Positions 21,658 through 31,431 of a stretch of 44,768 nt of DNA are shown here, piece after piece. The DNA is from Phycisphaerales bacterium. Its GTDB lineage: Bacteria; Planctomycetota; Phycisphaerae; Phycisphaerales; SM1A02. Positions within the stretch are counted from its first letter, which is position 1. Every line of letters begins with the position of its first letter. Both the position numbers and the translations under genes were made by a program. The notes below the pieces were generated by a model that had not been told where the DNA came from, ran no database searches, and saw only the letters and a program-made list of their open reading frames with translations. The stretch spans positions 6,058-50,825 of the forward strand of contig JABABZ010000001.1 in the NCBI GenBank assembly GCA_014237965.1. Reading direction: 5' to 3'.

Positions 21658-21708
21658 CCTGACCGGATTCCGGTGGATCTCCGAGCCCTCGAGAGGACTG
21701 GATACGCC

Positions 21709-22380
21709 GTGCGCGACGTGCAAGATCACTGGTTCCGCCAAGCGAAACGCGAGGGCTATCGCTCTCGAGCGGCGTTCAAGCTGACGGAGATCGATGACAA
21801 GAAGAAGGTGCTCTCCAAAGGCGATCGAGTGCTCGATTGCGGCGCGGCTCCAGGCTCGTGGTGTCAGGTCGCCGCCCGCCGAGTCGGTCCTAAGGGGACC
21901 GTGGTGGGGGTGGATCTGAAGTCGATCGATCCTTCCGGCCTTCCGCCGAACGTCACCTTGCTGGAAGCCGACCTTCGAGAAATCGAACTCCAGTCCATCG
22001 GCGGCACCGTGTTCGACGTGTTGCTCTCCGACATGGCACCCGATACCACCGGTGATCACTTCGGCGACCATCATCGATCCATTCGGCTCTGCAACGAACT
22101 CCTCGATCGAGCACACATCTGGCTCCGCCCTGGTGGAAATCTGGTCATGAAGGTGTTCGAGGGAGAGGCCTACCGAGACCTTCTCGACCGCGCGGGATCG
22201 ATGTTCAGCAAGGTCAAGGGGTTCAAGCCGGTCGCCAGTCGAGGGGAGTCGGTCGAGATGTTCGTGATCTGCTCCGGCCAGTTGTCGGCTTCGGAGCGAG
22301 ATCAGCAAGGTGGCGGGTCGGCGGAAGCCGAACAGATCGCACCGCCCCGACCGAAGCCGCGGCCCGGCTGGAGCAACTGA
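21709..22380 (+). CDS. rlmE: 23S rRNA (uridine-2'-O)-methyltransferase RlmE
   Basis: RlmE (FtsJ/RrmJ) methylates the ribose of U2552 in 23S rRNA late in 50S assembly. The product shows the family opening YRSRAAFKLTEID, the SAM-binding motif LDCGAAPGSWCQVA and the catalytic tetrad K-D-K-E. The tetrad lies in AAFKL, LSDMAPDTTGD, LVMKVFEGE and SRGESVEMFV. A proline-rich, probably disordered tail of about 30 residues extends beyond the family core. The GTG at 21709 is preferred because it lies a family-typical distance before the first motif and GAGAGG is about 11 bases upstream. A GTG at 21673 would add 12 residues and has no visible ribosome site. Confidence 0.95.
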   Translation: MRDVQDHWFRQAKREGYRSRAAFKLTEIDDKKKVLSKGDRVLDCGAAPGSWCQVAARRVGPKGTVVGVDLKSIDPSGLPPNVTLLEADLREIELQSIGGTVFDVLLSDMAPDTTGDHFGDHHRSIRLCNELLDRAHIWLRPGGNLVMKVFEGEAYRDLLDRAGSMFSKVKGFKPVASRGESVEMFVICSGQLSASERDQQGGGSAEAEQIAPPRPKPRPGWSN

Positions 22381-22515: not shown

Positions 22516-22532
22516 TTGGCATGGGTATTGCC
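22516..22532 (+). promoter_or_regulatory. Sigma-54 promoter (-24/-12)
   Basis: TTGGCATGGGTATTGCC has GG at 22518-22519 and GC at 22530-22531 with exactly ten bases between, the invariant spacing of sigma-54 promoters. The match to TGGCAC-N5-TTGC is close, with T in place of the second C. Predicted transcription starts near 22543, 29 bases before the ATG at 22572, leaving room for the CGGAG ribosome site. Sigma-54 promoters need an enhancer-binding activator; none is encoded in the window. Confidence 0.8.
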
Positions 22533-22571
22533 TCTCCTGATGGAACACGGAACCTTCCTCGGAGAACATCC

Positions 22572-23552
22572 ATGCAGATCGGACCATCCAACCCTGAGCT
22601 TCTCAGCCCCGCCGGCCTCTCTAAGGTCATCGGTGCGGCATCCAACACCGTTCGCCCCGTGGAGGCGGCCCCTCCCACGGAAGCGCCACCCACCGCCGCT
22701 GGAACCCAGATTCTCGACATGGATGCATTCATGTCCGCTTGGGGAAGCGATGACCAGACCTGGGATGTTGATGGGTCCGGAACGGTCGACGGCATCGACC
22801 TCGGCCAGTTGCTCGCGGCACAGACCGCGGCGTCGACCGGTGATGCGGAATTGCAGGGACTTCTCGGAGCCTGGGGCTCCGCAGACCCTGATTGGGACTT
22901 CAATGCCGACGGCATCGTCGACGGCCAGGACCTCGGCATCTACCTCAATGGCGGCATTCCCTCGGATTCCGGTTCTTCATCCGAGTCCATGACCGTCGAG
23001 GGCTTCATGGAAGCCTGGGGCTCCGCCGACCCGATGTACGACCTCAATGGTGACGGAACCGTCGATGGCCAGGACCTCGGGCAGTATCTCGAGCAGCAGA
23101 TGGAATCAACCGCCGATCCGAGTCTCCTGGATCAGTTCATGTCCGCCTGGGGAACTGACAACCAGGAATTCGACTTCAACGGTGACGGCATCGTCGATGG
23201 CATCGACCTCGGCATCATGCTCGAACAGGCCGAGGGAACGCAGCTTCCCTCTTCCGAGCTTCCCGGATCAGGCAGCACGAGCGAGGCGATGGTGAATCGA
23301 CTCGCGGACTACGCGATGTCCCGACTCGATACCAACGGCGACGGTTTCATCCCGCTGGAGTCGCTGGACATCAAGGACGCCGCCAAGACTCGGTTCGATC
23401 TTGACGGTGACGGGCAGCTCTCACGGTCCGAGATGTTGTCGATGATCACGGCCGACGCGAAGCGATTCATGGCCGTCGAGGGGAACAACCTGATCGACTT
23501 CGCCTCCCGCTGGGAGCCAGTCTTCGATGCCGGGCAGGATAACGGCGGATGA
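22572..23552 (+). CDS. Dockerin-like/EF-hand repeat protein without Sec signal
   Basis: The 326-residue acidic protein has no Sec signal or membrane segment. After a Pro/Thr/Ala-rich N-terminus (residues 1-48), four repeats with a period near 46 residues lie at about 53-82, 97-126, 144-174 and 189-219. Each has the form AWGS, then D.NGDG.VDG.DLG, the calcium loop of dockerin and EF-hand motifs. A pair of ordinary EF-hands follows (DTNGDGFI at 253-260 and DLDGDGQL at 276-283). It probably binds five or six calcium ions. There is no enzyme module, unlike typical dockerin proteins. The ATG at 22572 has CGGAG about eight bases upstream and stands behind the sigma-54 promoter. Its stop overlaps the next gene as ATGA. 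Export by a flagellar-type or other non-Sec route is inference. Confidence 0.82.
   Translation: MQIGPSNPELLSPAGLSKVIGAASNTVRPVEAAPPTEAPPTAAGTQILDMDAFMSAWGSDDQTWDVDGSGTVDGIDLGQLLAAQTAASTGDAELQGLLGAWGSADPDWDFNADGIVDGQDLGIYLNGGIPSDSGSSSESMTVEGFMEAWGSADPMYDLNGDGTVDGQDLGQYLEQQMESTADPSLLDQFMSAWGTDNQEFDFNGDGIVDGIDLGIMLEQAEGTQLPSSELPGSGSTSEAMVNRLADYAMSRLDTNGDGFIPLESLDIKDAAKTRFDLDGDGQLSRSEMLSMITADAKRFMAVEGNNLIDFASRWEPVFDAGQDNGG
22728..23228 (+). repeat. Four dockerin-like coding repeats
   Basis: Four in-frame units of about 138 bases encode the AWGS...DGxVDGxDLG modules. Units 2 and 3 share the phrase GAWGSADP / EAWGSADP and DGQDLG; units 1 and 4 share MSAWG and DGIDLG. The pattern 1-4 and 2-3 suggests duplication of a two-repeat block, partly inverted in order. 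Confidence 0.7.
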
Positions 23553-23812
23553 ACCCGATGAAACGTGCCGTCGGTAGTCATGCGGTTCGCCGGTTCGCTG
23601 ATGGGCCATCCTCGGTCGGAGTCGATCCGGTGGTGATCGCTCGAATCGCGGATCGGGTCGGAGGGATCCTCTCGAGTCTCGGACACCAGACGATCCCGCC
23701 GAACATCTCGATGGTGCTCGAGCGTCTGAACCTGCCCGAGTCTTCCGTTGAAGCGGTTCTCGAACGCTTGAAGCAGACTCGATCGATGGGATCGGTCGAG
23801 CTCACCGCCTGA
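23549..23812 (+). CDS. Small hypothetical protein coupled to the dockerin-like gene
   Basis: The 87-residue product is unassigned. Its ATG overlaps the TGA of the preceding gene (ATGA at 23549-23552), so translation is probably coupled and the two proteins likely act together. The N-terminal 20 residues are basic. The rest is predicted helical, with VVIARIADRVGGILSSLG and SMVLERLNLPESSVEAVLERLKQ as amphipathic helices. There is no signal peptide or membrane segment. The size and helical content would suit a chaperone or regulator of its partner, but there is no homology evidence. A large hairpin follows the stop. Confidence 0.65.
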   Translation: MNPMKRAVGSHAVRRFADGPSSVGVDPVVIARIADRVGGILSSLGHQTIPPNISMVLERLNLPESSVEAVLERLKQTRSMGSVELTA

Positions 23813-23887: not shown

Positions 23888-25123
23888 TCAGACGAGAGTC
23901 TTGAGTCTCGCCACGACCTCTTCGACGTTCGCTCGGCTGTTGAAGGCGCTGATTCGGAAGAACCCCTCGCCGCATCGCCCGAATCCGGCGCCGGGTGTGG
24001 TGACGATCTGCGCCTCTTTCAAGAGTCGGTCGAACATCCCCCAGCTGTCCTGGCCCGACGGGCACTTGACCCAGACATACGGCGCATTCTCCCCGCCATG
24101 GACGGTGAGTCCCATTGCTTCGCAACCTCCTCGGAGGAGACCGGCATTGGTCATGTAGTGATCGATCAACATCGAGGTCTGTTCGAGCCCTTCCGTCGAA
24201 TACAAGGCCTCGGCGCCACGCTGCACGGGCCAGCTGACGCCATTGCTTCGGGTGCTCCAGCGTCGACTCCAGAGCTGGTGCAGCGGCACGCTCCGTCCAT
24301 CGCGGGTCCGGCCTTCGAGCGTCTTGGGAACCACCGTGTACCCACAGCGGATTCCGGTGAACCCGCCGTTCTTGGAGAAGCTCCTCGTTTCGATCGCGCA
24401 CTTGTTCGCGCCGGGAATCTCGAAGATGCTCCGAGGCAGATCCGGATCTCGGATGAAGTTCACATAGGCGGCGTCATAGACGATCAATGCGTCGGTCTCG
24501 AGCGCCCACTCGACCCAGTCCTGGAGGCGCGGGTGGTCGATCGTCGATCCGGTCGGGTTGTTCGGAAAGCAGAGATACACGAGATCGACGGGTGACTCGG
24601 GTGGGCTCGGAACGAAGCCATTGGCTTCGTTGCCTTCCATGGTGACGAGCCCTTCGTATCCTCCGCCATCGAGCGGTTCGTCGGTGTTTCCGACCATCAC
24701 ATTGGTGTCGACGTACACGGGGTAGACGGGATCGGTCACCGCGACGCGGTTTCCGACGCCCAGAATCTCCAGGAGGCTTCCGCAATCACCCTTCGATCCG
24801 TCGCTGACGAAGATCTCGTCGTCGGTGATCCCGATGCCTCGGTTTCGATAGTCGTGTTCGGCGATGGCCTTCCGAAGGAAGTCGTATCCGGTCGGTGGGG
24901 GATACCCGCGGAAAGTCTCATGCGATCCGAGGTCGTCGATCGCGTCGTGCATCGCCGAGAGGACGGCCGGGACGATCGGTTCCGTGACGTCTCCGATGCC
25001 GCATCTGATGATTCGGCCTGCGATCGCGGGATTCGCGTCGACATATTCGTTCACGCGACGTGCGATTTCTGGAAACAGATATCCCGCAGCGAGCTTGAGG
25101 TAGTTTTCGTTGATGAAGACCAT
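23888..25123 (-). CDS. dapL: LL-diaminopimelate aminotransferase
   Basis: DapL converts tetrahydrodipicolinate directly to LL-diaminopimelate with glutamate as amino donor, the short route to lysine and the peptidoglycan cross-linking residue. The 411-residue protein starts with the diagnostic INENYLKL...AGYLFPEIARRV and has the PLP-binding lysine in SFSKNGGFTG (Lys251). The fold-type I aminotransferase phrases FPNNPTGS and VYDAAYVNF are also present, and the C-terminus contains GRCGEGFFRISAF. The start matches the family exactly. A TATGCT -10 box (minus strand, plus coordinates 25178-25183) lies 55 bases upstream, so dapL may have its own promoter. This pathway is common in planctomycetes. 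Confidence 0.97.
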   Translation of the reverse strand: MVFINENYLKLAAGYLFPEIARRVNEYVDANPAIAGRIIRCGIGDVTEPIVPAVLSAMHDAIDDLGSHETFRGYPPPTGYDFLRKAIAEHDYRNRGIGITDDEIFVSDGSKGDCGSLLEILGVGNRVAVTDPVYPVYVDTNVMVGNTDEPLDGGGYEGLVTMEGNEANGFVPSPPESPVDLVYLCFPNNPTGSTIDHPRLQDWVEWALETDALIVYDAAYVNFIRDPDLPRSIFEIPGANKCAIETRSFSKNGGFTGIRCGYTVVPKTLEGRTRDGRSVPLHQLWSRRWSTRSNGVSWPVQRGAEALYSTEGLEQTSMLIDHYMTNAGLLRGGCEAMGLTVHGGENAPYVWVKCPSGQDSWGMFDRLLKEAQIVTTPGAGFGRCGEGFFRISAFNSRANVEEVVARLKTLV

Positions 25124-27744: not shown

Positions 27745-30700
27745 ATGAGCCGTCGACCTTCGATTCGTTCTGTCCTTCGCTTCGCCCTTCTGACGGGGGC
27801 GATCGGCCTTCTCAGCTCCGGGCTCACGGTGGCCACTGCAGCGGCAGCGGTCTTCGGGAACTCCGGAACTCTTCGGGCGGAAGGAAACGTCGACCTTCCT
27901 CGATTCCCGAGCATCAGCCCGGATGGAGAGACCGTCGTCTTCAGTTGGCGAGGGGACCTTTGGAAGGTTCCTTTCGGGGGCGGAACCGCGACGAGACTCA
28001 CCAGCCATCCAGGCCGTGATCATGATTCGGCCTGGACGCCGGATGGTTCCATGATCGTGTTCGAAAGCGATCGAGATGGGACCACCAATCTCTGGAGAAT
28101 GGCCCCGGACGGCACCGGACTGCGGCGAATCACGGATCTTGACACTTCGGTGGCCCTCGGAGGGGTCGGGCACGATGCGGACGGGGAGGTCGTGGTTGGA
28201 TTCACGGGCTATCTCGAGGGCGATCTGTATCGTTCCCCGCGGCCATACGAGGTTTCGATCGAGGGTGGCGAGCCTCGTCGGCTGCATGACGCGTTCGGTG
28301 GTCTGAACGTCCGAAGTCCCGATGGGACCCGGGCCGCCTTCGAGCGGGGCAACGCGAAGTGGGAACGTCGCCACTATCGAGGTGACGACCGTCGAAACGT
28401 GTGGATTCACGATGGCGTGGAAGGCGGCTTCTCCCCGTTGACCGACTGGGAAGGAAACGATGGGAAGCCGCGATGGTCGGGCGATGACGCGGTGTTCTTC
28501 CTCTCCGATCGTCAGAACTCGACTCACAACATTCATCGTCAGCCGCTCGGTGGGGGAGAGGCTGAGGCGATCACCGACTTCGAAGAGATCGACGTCGCCG
28601 GTTTCGACGCCACCGCCGACGGACGAAAGATCGTCCTGCATCGTTGGGATTCCCTCTACACGATCGATCTCGATGATCCGGACTCGGTACCCCGCCCGCT
28701 GGTCATCATGGCGCCGGAAGACGCGCTCGACTCGGAGGAGAACCTCGACATCTCCCGACGGGTGACCGAGTCGGCGCTCAATCCGGATGGAAAGTCGATC
28801 GCGGTGATCGCGTATGGCGAGGTGGTGGTCCGCGGAACGGATGACGACTCGCTCTCACGTCGAGTGACCGAGACGCATGGTCGCGAGCGTGATCTCGCGT
28901 GGAGCCCCGATGGAACCACGCTCTACTTCACCTCCATGAATGGTGGCAATGCCTCGATCATGACGGCGACCGTGGCGCGGACCCGCGACGAGATCAAGCA
29001 GAACTATGCGGATCGAACGGCCCCCGAAGAAGCCGATGAGGAAGTCGAAGAGTCGACCGACCCTGAAGCCGAGGGTTCGAAAGACGACGCAGATGGGAAC
29101 GCCGGGCCGGATGATTCGCCGGCGGAGGCGTCCGAAGCGAAGCCGGCCGAGGGGGACGCATCGTCCGAGGACGATGCCGAGTCGAAGAAGGACGCGGAGT
29201 CGGAAGGCGATTCGGCGGCGAAGGACGATGCGGAGGCCGAGGATGAGTCCGATCCGCTCCTCGACCCGGCTCGGTGGGCGGATGCGGTGAGTTTCGAACT
29301 GACTCCTCTGCTCGACGCCGGTACCAACGATCATCGGGCCCTGCCATCGCCGGATGGCATGAAGCTGGGATTCATCCGTGGTCTTGGCGATCTGATGCTC
29401 TTCGATCTGGCCACCGGGGAGGAGACGTTGCTTCGAGCCGGATGGGATCGCGGCATCGAATTCGAGTGGAGTCTCGATTCGGCCTGGATCGTCTTCGATC
29501 AAGCCGACATGAACTTCAATCAGGACGTCTTCATCGTGCCGAGTGACGGGTCGGCGGCGCCGATCAACATCTCCCGGCATCCCGACAACGACGGCGGCGC
29601 CAGGTTCTCCGCGGACGCGAAGGTGTTGGCGTTCTCCAGCGAGCGCGATGGCGAGGAGTACGACGTCTGGTACGTGTTCCTTGATCGTGAGTTGGAGAAA
29701 CTGGCCGAACCCGAACTCGAAAAATACTTCGAAGACGCCGGCAAGGCGGCCAAGAAGAGGAAGCCGCTTGATCCGAACAAGGTGCGGAAGGCACTGGCCG
29801 CGGCCGCCGCGGCCGCGGTGACGGACGCCGAAGGCGAGCCGGATCCGGACGCGTCGAACCAGGTGGCTGAGGGCGAGGGATCGGAGGAAGAGGCCGATGC
29901 CCCGCCGTTCACGACCGAGGATCTTGAGACGGCGTATCTGCGACTTCGGAAGTTGACGAGTCTTCCGGGGAACGAGACGCGACTCACGATGCTGTCGGCC
30001 GGAAACGCCGTCTTGTTCAGCAGCAGCACGTCGGCTCCCGGAGTCTCCGGACTCTATACGGTCAAGTGGAACGGTACGGGTCGGAAGCGGCTCGGCGATT
30101 CGGTTTCGATGATGGGGCTCTCCGAAGACGGCGGGCGACTGGTCGCCGTCGGATCGGGGTCCGCCAAGACCATCGACGTTGGAAGCGGCAAGGTGACTTC
30201 GTACCCGATCAAGATGCGCATTCGACTCGATCTCGAGGCGCAGTCGAGCGAGAAGTTCCTCGAGGCGGCCGGGATCATCGGCGCGATCTTCTACGATCCC
30301 GAGATGAAGGGGCTGGACTGGCCCGCGTTGACCGAGCGATATCACGAGCTCGCCCGGAAGGCGAGAACCGCGGATGAGTTCAACTGGGTGGCCAATCGAC
30401 TCATCGGCGAACTCAGTTCCTCCCACATGGGAATCCGGGCCCGGGCCGAGACGATGCCGCTGTCACAGTCGATCGGTCGCCTCGGCGTCGATCTCGAAGT
30501 GGTGGACAACGGCTATCGAGTCACCGGGATCATCGAGGGTTCGCCGGCGGTGGAGACCGAGATGCCCTTGCAGGTCGGTGACGTGATCACCGCGATCGAT
30601 CTCGAGCCACTCGATCTCGATACGACCCCTCCGGACACCGTCGGCGGCCGCCTTCGTGGAAAGAGCGGTTCCGAGGTGATCCTCACCGTGCTGCGGACCG

Positions 30701-31431
30701 AACCGGCATCCGAAGACGGGACGATGCAGGATCCGGTCGAACTCGATCTCCTCCTCACCCCGATCTCGAACAGTGCCGTTCGAGGTCTCGTGTATCGAGC
30801 GACTCAGCGTCGTCGTTCGGCGCTGGTCGATGAATGGTCCGGCGGTCGGCTCGGATACACCCACATTCGAGGAATGAACCAGCCGTCGCTCGACGAATTC
30901 GAACGAGACATCTTCGCCGCGGCGGAAGGCCGGGACGGACTCATCGTCGATGTCCGGGACAATGGCGGCGGTTGGACGACGGATCGACTGCTCGCCTCGA
31001 TCATGGCTCGTCCGCATGCCTACACCGTCCCGAGGGGCGCGGATCCGTCGATCACCGGAACCTATCCCCAGGACCGGCTCTACATCCAGCGATTCATGCT
31101 TCCGATGAACATGCTCTGCAACGAGAAGAGTTATTCGAACGCCGAGATCATCTCCCATGCATTCAAGACCTTCGAACGTGGAACGCTGGTCGGGCAACGG
31201 ACCCATGGCAGTGTCATCTCCACCGGTGGAACTTCGCTGATCGACGGCACCTCGGTACGACTTCCTTTCCGAGGGTGGTATCTGGAGAGTGGCGAGGACA
31301 TGGACAACAACGGCGCCATTCCCGACATCGTGGTGACGCAGACTCCGGAAGATGAAGCGGCTGGAATCGATGCGCAATTGAAGGCCGCGGTCGACGATCT
31401 GATGAAACGGCTCGACGAAACATCGCCATGA
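27745..31431 (+). CDS. Secreted tricorn-like protease (S41 peptidase with beta-propellers and PDZ)
   Basis: The 1228-residue product follows the tricorn protease plan. After a signal peptide (about 1-35), a six-bladed TolB/WD40-like propeller spans about 45-410 (for example DSAWTPDGSMIVFESDRDGTTNLW). An acidic linker covers 420-507, and a second propeller follows to about 830. A C1 domain carries the Ser893-His894 dyad (SSSHMG), equivalent to the tricorn Ser-His pair. A PDZ domain lies at about 905-1010, and the S41 core at about 1030-1215 has VDVRDNGGGW and the nucleophile Ser1131 in SYSNAE. Archaeal tricorn is cytosolic; the signal peptide places this one in the periplasm. A run of seven alanines near 689-695 marks another linker. 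TTTGGAGA precedes the ATG. The stop overlaps the next gene. Confidence 0.93.
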   Translation: MSRRPSIRSVLRFALLTGAIGLLSSGLTVATAAAAVFGNSGTLRAEGNVDLPRFPSISPDGETVVFSWRGDLWKVPFGGGTATRLTSHPGRDHDSAWTPDGSMIVFESDRDGTTNLWRMAPDGTGLRRITDLDTSVALGGVGHDADGEVVVGFTGYLEGDLYRSPRPYEVSIEGGEPRRLHDAFGGLNVRSPDGTRAAFERGNAKWERRHYRGDDRRNVWIHDGVEGGFSPLTDWEGNDGKPRWSGDDAVFFLSDRQNSTHNIHRQPLGGGEAEAITDFEEIDVAGFDATADGRKIVLHRWDSLYTIDLDDPDSVPRPLVIMAPEDALDSEENLDISRRVTESALNPDGKSIAVIAYGEVVVRGTDDDSLSRRVTETHGRERDLAWSPDGTTLYFTSMNGGNASIMTATVARTRDEIKQNYADRTAPEEADEEVEESTDPEAEGSKDDADGNAGPDDSPAEASEAKPAEGDASSEDDAESKKDAESEGDSAAKDDAEAEDESDPLLDPARWADAVSFELTPLLDAGTNDHRALPSPDGMKLGFIRGLGDLMLFDLATGEETLLRAGWDRGIEFEWSLDSAWIVFDQADMNFNQDVFIVPSDGSAAPINISRHPDNDGGARFSADAKVLAFSSERDGEEYDVWYVFLDRELEKLAEPELEKYFEDAGKAAKKRKPLDPNKVRKALAAAAAAAVTDAEGEPDPDASNQVAEGEGSEEEADAPPFTTEDLETAYLRLRKLTSLPGNETRLTMLSAGNAVLFSSSTSAPGVSGLYTVKWNGTGRKRLGDSVSMMGLSEDGGRLVAVGSGSAKTIDVGSGKVTSYPIKMRIRLDLEAQSSEKFLEAAGIIGAIFYDPEMKGLDWPALTERYHELARKARTADEFNWVANRLIGELSSSHMGIRARAETMPLSQSIGRLGVDLEVVDNGYRVTGIIEGSPAVETEMPLQVGDVITAIDLEPLDLDTTPPDTVGGRLRGKSGSEVILTVLRTEPASEDGTMQDPVELDLLLTPISNSAVRGLVYRATQRRRSALVDEWSGGRLGYTHIRGMNQPSLDEFERDIFAAAEGRDGLIVDVRDNGGGWTTDRLLASIMARPHAYTVPRGADPSITGTYPQDRLYIQRFMLPMNMLCNEKSYSNAEIISHAFKTFERGTLVGQRTHGSVISTGGTSLIDGTSVRLPFRGWYLESGEDMDNNGAIPDIVVTQTPEDEAAGIDAQLKAAVDDLMKRLDETSP

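What the first reader, a model, noticed from the sequence alone, without database searches (positions are those of the whole stretch)
22516..23812. Sigma-54 promoter driving a Sec-less dockerin-like repeat protein and a coupled small protein
A -24/-12 element with exact 10-base GG-GC spacing sits just ahead of a gene encoding four dockerin-like calcium-binding repeats plus an EF-hand pair. The protein has no Sec signal, no enzyme module and no anchor. The next gene overlaps it as ATGA. Dockerin repeats in planctomycetes normally end large secreted proteins, so a short free-standing set under alternative-sigma control looks like a separate system. It could be a calcium-responsive cytosolic protein, or a substrate of a flagellar-type exporter given the frequent link of sigma-54 to motility.
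Basis: partly seen in the sequence, partly recalled or inferred. Interest (0 to 1): 0.75.

Follow-up and report, generated by a model that had tools for sequence, protein, structure and literature searches.

The report
Flagellum-linked calcium-loop protein under sigma-54
In one family of planctomycete bacteria, a calcium-binding-type protein without a secretion signal is always switched on by the same special promoter and occurs only in genomes that carry the flagellar export machine, so it is probably a previously undescribed flagellar accessory or export substrate, here split into two overlapping genes.

Summary
An exact sigma-54 site (TGGCATGGGTATTGC, 22517-22531) lies 40 nt before a 326-aa ORF with four dockerin-type calcium loops, an EF-hand pair and no Sec signal. 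An 87-aa ORF overlaps its end as ATGA. All 34 homologous loci with readable upstream DNA, in 19 genera, keep GGC-N7-TTGC 31-55 nt before the ATG. None of the 28 N-termini tested is signal-peptide-like. The 'coupled small protein' is not an independent partner: in every other relative that keeps it, it is the C-terminal domain of one fused protein. A fission in the window's subclade produced two overlapping ORFs, both under purifying selection. The protein lies between rlmE and, in most loci, a dapL-like aminotransferase gene. In the same genus, sigma-54 sites also precede flgF-flgG. All 34 family-bearing genomes have FlhA, against 126 of 181 overall. Best reading: a sigma-54-controlled, flagellum-linked Ca2+-loop protein, plausibly exported by the flagellar type III apparatus and folding on Ca2+ outside. 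Export, Ca2+ binding and sigma-54 dependence are not shown experimentally. The C-terminal domain has no Pfam or NCBIfam match above cut-off and no confident fold match.

The parts
22517..22531 (+). sigma-54 (-24/-12) promoter TGGCATGGGTATTGC
   Evidence: exact consensus, only such match in own genome; GGC-N7-TTGC invariant in 34/34 homologous loci
22559..22565 (+). Shine-Dalgarno-like region around CGGAGAA ahead of ATG 22572 (approximate)
   Evidence: GGAG/AGGAG-type motif at the matching place in nearly all relatives
22572..23552 (+). ORF1, 326 aa: disordered Ser/Thr/Pro-rich N-terminus, four dockerin-type calcium-loop repeats, EF-hand pair
   Evidence: dN/dS 0.14-0.19 across five species
22572..22700 (+). 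N-terminal segment MQIGPSNPELLSPAG..., unstructured, no Sec signal; candidate type III export signal (inferred)
   Evidence: pLDDT below 50 for residues 1-45 of the fused homologue; low hydrophobicity in all 28 relatives tested
23549..23812 (+). ORF2, 87 aa: C-terminal helical domain, overlapping ORF1 as ATGA; fused to ORF1 in other relatives
   Evidence: predicted helices 27-43, 53-58, 64-77; dN/dS 0.16-0.34
21673..22380 (+). conserved upstream neighbour rlmE/ftsJ (rRNA methyltransferase)
   Evidence: Pfam FtsJ 2.7e-48; upstream of the family gene in 8 of 8 loci checked
23888..25123 (-). convergent downstream neighbour, aminotransferase class I/II (dapL-like)
   Evidence: Pfam Aminotran_1_2 1.9e-31; found in 5 of 8 loci checked

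Best explanation
The pair is the split form of one conserved protein family confined, in the genomes searched, to one GTDB-level family of the planctomycete order sampled. RNA polymerase with sigma-54 transcribes it from an invariant -24/-12 promoter, in the same regulon as flagellar rod genes (flgF-flgG here) (shown: sites; inferred: usage). The protein has no Sec signal. It carries an unstructured Ser/Thr/Pro-rich N-terminus, a variable number of calcium-loop repeats (EF-hands only to six units) and a small helical C-terminal domain, which in the window's subclade is encoded as a separate ORF overlapping as ATGA (shown; translational coupling is inferred from the overlap). Inferred: it is kept unfolded in the calcium-poor cytosol, passes through the flagellar type III channel and folds on Ca2+ outside as a flagellum-associated accessory or secreted factor.
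For: Promoter: 34/34 loci in 19 genera keep GGC-N7-TTGC 31-55 nt before the ATG; flgE upstream regions in most of the same genomes do not, a built-in negative control. rpoN present. Flagella: 34/34 profile-identified family genomes carry FlhA against 126/181 in the taxon, hypergeometric 9e-7 by genome and 0.008 by genus. flgF has the sigma-54 site at -72/-75 in all eight genomes of the window's genus and a neighbouring genus where flgF was located; flgE has one in two further genera. Sec-less: 28/28. Disordered N-terminus. Fission: fused in the other relatives, split in one group of five species, both parts selected. A published sigma-54 survey finds flagellar genes enriched in Planctomycetia (PMC12316311).
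Against: About 90 FlhA-positive genomes of the taxon lack a detected member, so it is not a core flagellar part. The gene sits between rlmE and dapL, not in a flagellar cluster. The sigma-54 regulon here also includes chaperone genes (dnaK, hsp20), so sigma-54 control alone does not mean flagella. FlhA co-occurrence is only modest (p 0.008) at genus level and was not tested on a species tree. There is no direct evidence of export, and no dedicated type III chaperone was identified.
Confidence: 0.5

Rival explanations
1. A cytosolic calcium-responsive regulator or scaffold of the sigma-54/flagellar programme: it senses Ca2+ inside the cell, and the helical C-terminal domain docks on a flagellar or transcriptional partner.
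For: No export signal of a known kind; the small helical C-terminal domain has a weak, sub-threshold similarity to an IclR-type HTH (E 0.012); the C-terminal domain is maintained as a separate polypeptide in five species.
Against: Dockerin-type loops are usually extracellular and would be largely calcium-free at cytosolic Ca2+ (general knowledge); repeat number varies freely, more like a structural or surface protein; no HTH match above cut-off and no fold match.
Confidence: 0.25
2. A sigma-54 general stress or envelope protein with no functional tie to flagella; the FlhA association reflects shared ancestry and genome reduction in flagellum-less lineages.
For: Chaperone genes share the sigma-54 signature; genus-level association is modest; genomic location is non-flagellar.
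Against: No member detected in any of 55 FlhA-less genomes, while rpoN is near universal in the taxon (162/181); flgF-flgG carries the same type of site in the same genus.
Confidence: 0.17
3. Export by another Sec-independent route (for example type I, like RTX proteins), with a C-terminal signal.
For: Acidic, calcium-loop-rich, Sec-less protein with a conserved C-terminus, the general layout of type I substrates (general knowledge).
Against: In the window's subclade the conserved C-terminus is a separate polypeptide, so ORF1 would have lost its signal while remaining under selection; the immediate neighbours tested are not type I genes.
Confidence: 0.08

Closest known systems
Type I / GC-type dockerin repeats (Pfam PF00404, NCBIfam NF041540)
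   Same: Calcium-loop units DxNxDGxVDGxDLGxxL with AWG-containing linkers; NF041540 passes its cut-off on the window ORF1 (33.4 bits against 29) and on the fused homologue L018 (37.3)
   Different: No secreted enzyme or anchor, no Sec signal, up to six units in tandem, often followed by an EF-hand pair and a new C-terminal domain
XopAW family calcium-binding type III effector (NF041410)
   Same: Sec-less EF-hand protein of the type III substrate class; weak match 25.6 bits over calcium-loop regions
   Different: Far below the curated cut-off of 120 bits; not a member
Sigma-54-controlled flagellar genes (rod/hook class, as in Vibrio, Campylobacter, Helicobacter)
   Same: Same -24/-12 type of promoter; flgF-flgG shares it in the window's genus; FlhA co-occurrence
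   Different: Not a known rod, hook, cap or FlgM protein; a separate FlgM-like gene exists in the same genome

Membership tests
sigma-54 promoter | GG-N10-GC with TGGC/TTGC core upstream of a start codon | tested here: met
sigma-54 promoter | rpoN in the genome | tested here: met
   204.7 bits, open frame of 542 aa
sigma-54 promoter | transcription depends on RpoN and an enhancer-binding protein | not testable with these tools
   needs expression data or a mutant
Dockerin type I (PF00404/NF041540) | calcium loop-helix units above the curated cut-off | tested here: met
   PF00404 35.7 bits (cut-off 22.9), NF041540 33.4 (cut-off 29)
Dockerin type I (PF00404/NF041540) | attached to a Sec-secreted enzyme or scaffold | tested here: not met
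   no Sec signal, no enzyme module: 'repeats like a dockerin', not a cellulosomal dockerin
Dockerin type I (PF00404/NF041540) | bound by a cohesin | not testable with these tools
   needs a binding experiment
flagellar type III export substrate | occurs only with the export apparatus (FlhA) | tested here: met
   34/34 profile-identified genomes; FlhA-positive genomes without the gene also exist
flagellar type III export substrate | unstructured N-terminal segment without a Sec signal | tested here: met
   consistent with, not diagnostic of, such a signal
flagellar type III export substrate | FlhA-dependent export | not testable with these tools
   needs an experiment
FlgM anti-sigma factor | match to PF04316 | tested here: not met
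   no FlgM hit in ORF1 or ORF2; one search finds a separate FlgM-like gene at G000:C133
XopAW effector (NF041410) | score above curated cut-off | tested here: not met
   25.6 bits against 120

The most novel reading that the evidence does not exclude
A new class of flagellar type III substrate: a dockerin-like calcium-loop protein kept unfolded in the calcium-poor cytosol, exported under sigma-54 timing and locked into shape by environmental calcium outside, with its C-terminal domain delivered as a separate translationally coupled protein in one subclade.
Probability: 0.35. Interest if true: 0.75.

Novelty: new variant of a known kind. Interest (0 to 1): 0.58.

Why it matters
It identifies a protein family (an unnamed C-terminal domain plus calcium-loop repeats) whose promoter core is invariant across 19 genera, and ties it to flagella in a phylum whose motility regulation is little studied. 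If the export reading holds, calcium-induced folding would be used to draw substrates through the flagellar channel, as RTX proteins do in type I secretion. It also gives a clean natural case of one protein fissioned into two overlapping genes.

Tried and rejected
Chance -24/-12 site: rejected by conservation in 34/34 loci. Missed signal-peptide extension upstream of 22572: the open frame to 22512 is not conserved and overlaps the promoter. Sequencing error or pseudogene for the split: rejected; five species, the same ATGA overlap, both ORFs under purifying selection. Programmed frameshift: not favoured; no shared slippery heptamer was seen at the junction by eye, and in the window the ORF2 frame is closed two codons upstream. 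FlgM replacement: rejected; a separate FlgM-like gene exists. Fold-based identity of the C-terminal domain: Foldseek against the PDB gave nothing significant, and the profile search of PDB sequences gave nothing below E 0.2. First genome contigs attempt with the diverse C-terminal alignment failed for lack of conserved stretches; the full-length alignment worked. Of the other strict sigma-54 matches in the own genome, only the flgF site lies clearly before a start codon; the rest are intragenic or unclear and were not used as evidence.

Full report
Observation. The window carries TGGCATGGGTATTGC at 22517-22531 (GG and GC 10 nt apart), ATG 22572 with GGAG upstream, a 326-aa ORF1 to 23552 and an 87-aa ORF2 at 23549-23812 overlapping as ATGA. 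The site is the only exact TGGCAYRN4TTGC in the window and in the 3.03 Mb assembly. About 5.5 per genome would be expected from base composition, and strict sites are generally rarer than the reversed control pattern. Pfam finds EF-hands and Dockerin_1 in ORF1 and nothing over cut-off in ORF2. NCBIfam gives GC-type dockerin above cut-off on ORF1 and a weak XopAW hit.

Relatives. ORF2 and ORF1 were searched in the taxon family. In three relatives of the same genus (G128, G129, G130) and in the other genera that keep the domain, the two are one continuous ORF; only G000, G127, G131, G132 and G133 have the ATGA split. The tree places the split species on one side of one branch, with modest support (75/97), so one fission is the simplest account. 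Both halves are under purifying selection (dN/dS 0.14-0.19 for ORF1, 0.16-0.34 for ORF2). That the fused form is ancestral is inferred from its spread over the other genera.

Family. A profile of the C-terminal domain finds it in 29 of 181 genomes of the taxon family. A deeper profile adds five and finds none in the other families of the order within a 400-genome sample. Inspection adds two more members: G049 (six repeats, diverged C-terminus) and G003 (no recognisable C-terminal domain). Repeat number runs from none (G001, EF-hands only) to six. The public records are Phycisphaerae/Phycisphaerales MAGs, for example Phycisphaera sp. TMED9.

Promoter. In all 34 loci with readable upstream DNA, 19 genera, GGC-N7-TTGC lies 31-55 nt before the ATG, with GGC and TTGC invariant. 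The site was picked as the best in a 90-nt window; the chance of the seven fixed bases there is roughly 1% per locus (my estimate from base composition). The flgE upstream regions of most of the same genomes lack such a site, which serves as a negative control.

Flagellar link. FlhA is present in 126 of 181 genomes and in all 34 profile-identified family-bearing ones (hypergeometric 9e-7 by genome, 0.008 by genus; not corrected on a tree). RpoN is near universal (162/181), so it cannot explain the pattern. In the window's genus and a neighbouring genus, flgF-flgG has a sigma-54 site 72-75 nt before flgF in 8/8 genomes examined; flgE has one in G069 and G001. flgF and flgE were named from their sequences and mutual similarity, not from a family search. 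sigma-54 sites also precede dnaK-like and hsp20-like genes in other genera. A published survey reports sigma-54 enrichment of flagellar basal-body genes in Planctomycetia and of chaperones in Planctomycetia and, less, Phycisphaerae (PMC12316311).

Structure. ORF2 models as three well-predicted helices (mean pLDDT 72.5, core about 86) with no significant PDB match. The fused homologue has a disordered N-terminus (residues 1-45), EF-hand-like repeats and low overall confidence; its best PDB matches are calmodulin-type EF-hand proteins at marginal E-values. No N-terminus of 28 tested is signal-peptide-like by hydrophobicity; no dedicated signal-peptide predictor was available.

Mechanism. Shown: invariant sigma-54 site, Sec-less calcium-loop protein, flagella-only occurrence in the genomes searched, split into two ORFs in one group. 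Inferred: sigma-54 transcription, calcium binding, translational coupling, export by the flagellar type III apparatus with calcium-induced folding outside. The cytosolic sensor reading is the main rival. The separation of the C-terminus in one group argues against a C-terminal (type I) export signal.

Verdict. A real protein family without a name in Pfam or NCBIfam for its C-terminal domain, more interesting than a lone chance promoter, but with its function untested.

Noticed in passing
L093:3653 (G000:C296:6652) and orthologues in G127, G131, G132, G133, G129, G130, G040: A conserved sigma-54 site 72-75 nt before flgF, followed by flgG: flagellar rod genes appear to be sigma-54 controlled in this clade.
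   Followed up: yes
L135 (G065 dnaK-like), L098 (G065 hsp20-like), L150 (G001 hsp20-like): Strict sigma-54 sites directly before chaperone genes in other genera, suggesting a sigma-54 heat-shock branch.
   Followed up: partly
and tables (G129 C25, G132 C14, G040 C29, G043 C37, G069 C23): rpoN lies about 7-9 kb from flgE in several genera.
   Followed up: no
table against table: FlgM-like matches are found in 159 of 181 genomes, including many that lack FlhA (for example genus g5), so FlgM-like proteins may serve another sigma factor there.
   Followed up: no
table: Strict sigma-54 consensus matches are about 2.3 times rarer than the reversed control pattern in 11 genomes (85 against 199), as if spurious sites were selected against.
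   Followed up: no
window 27745-31431 (+): Large tricorn-protease-like gene (named from its sequence only) with a long acidic low-complexity insert; conserved near the family gene in other genera.
   Followed up: no
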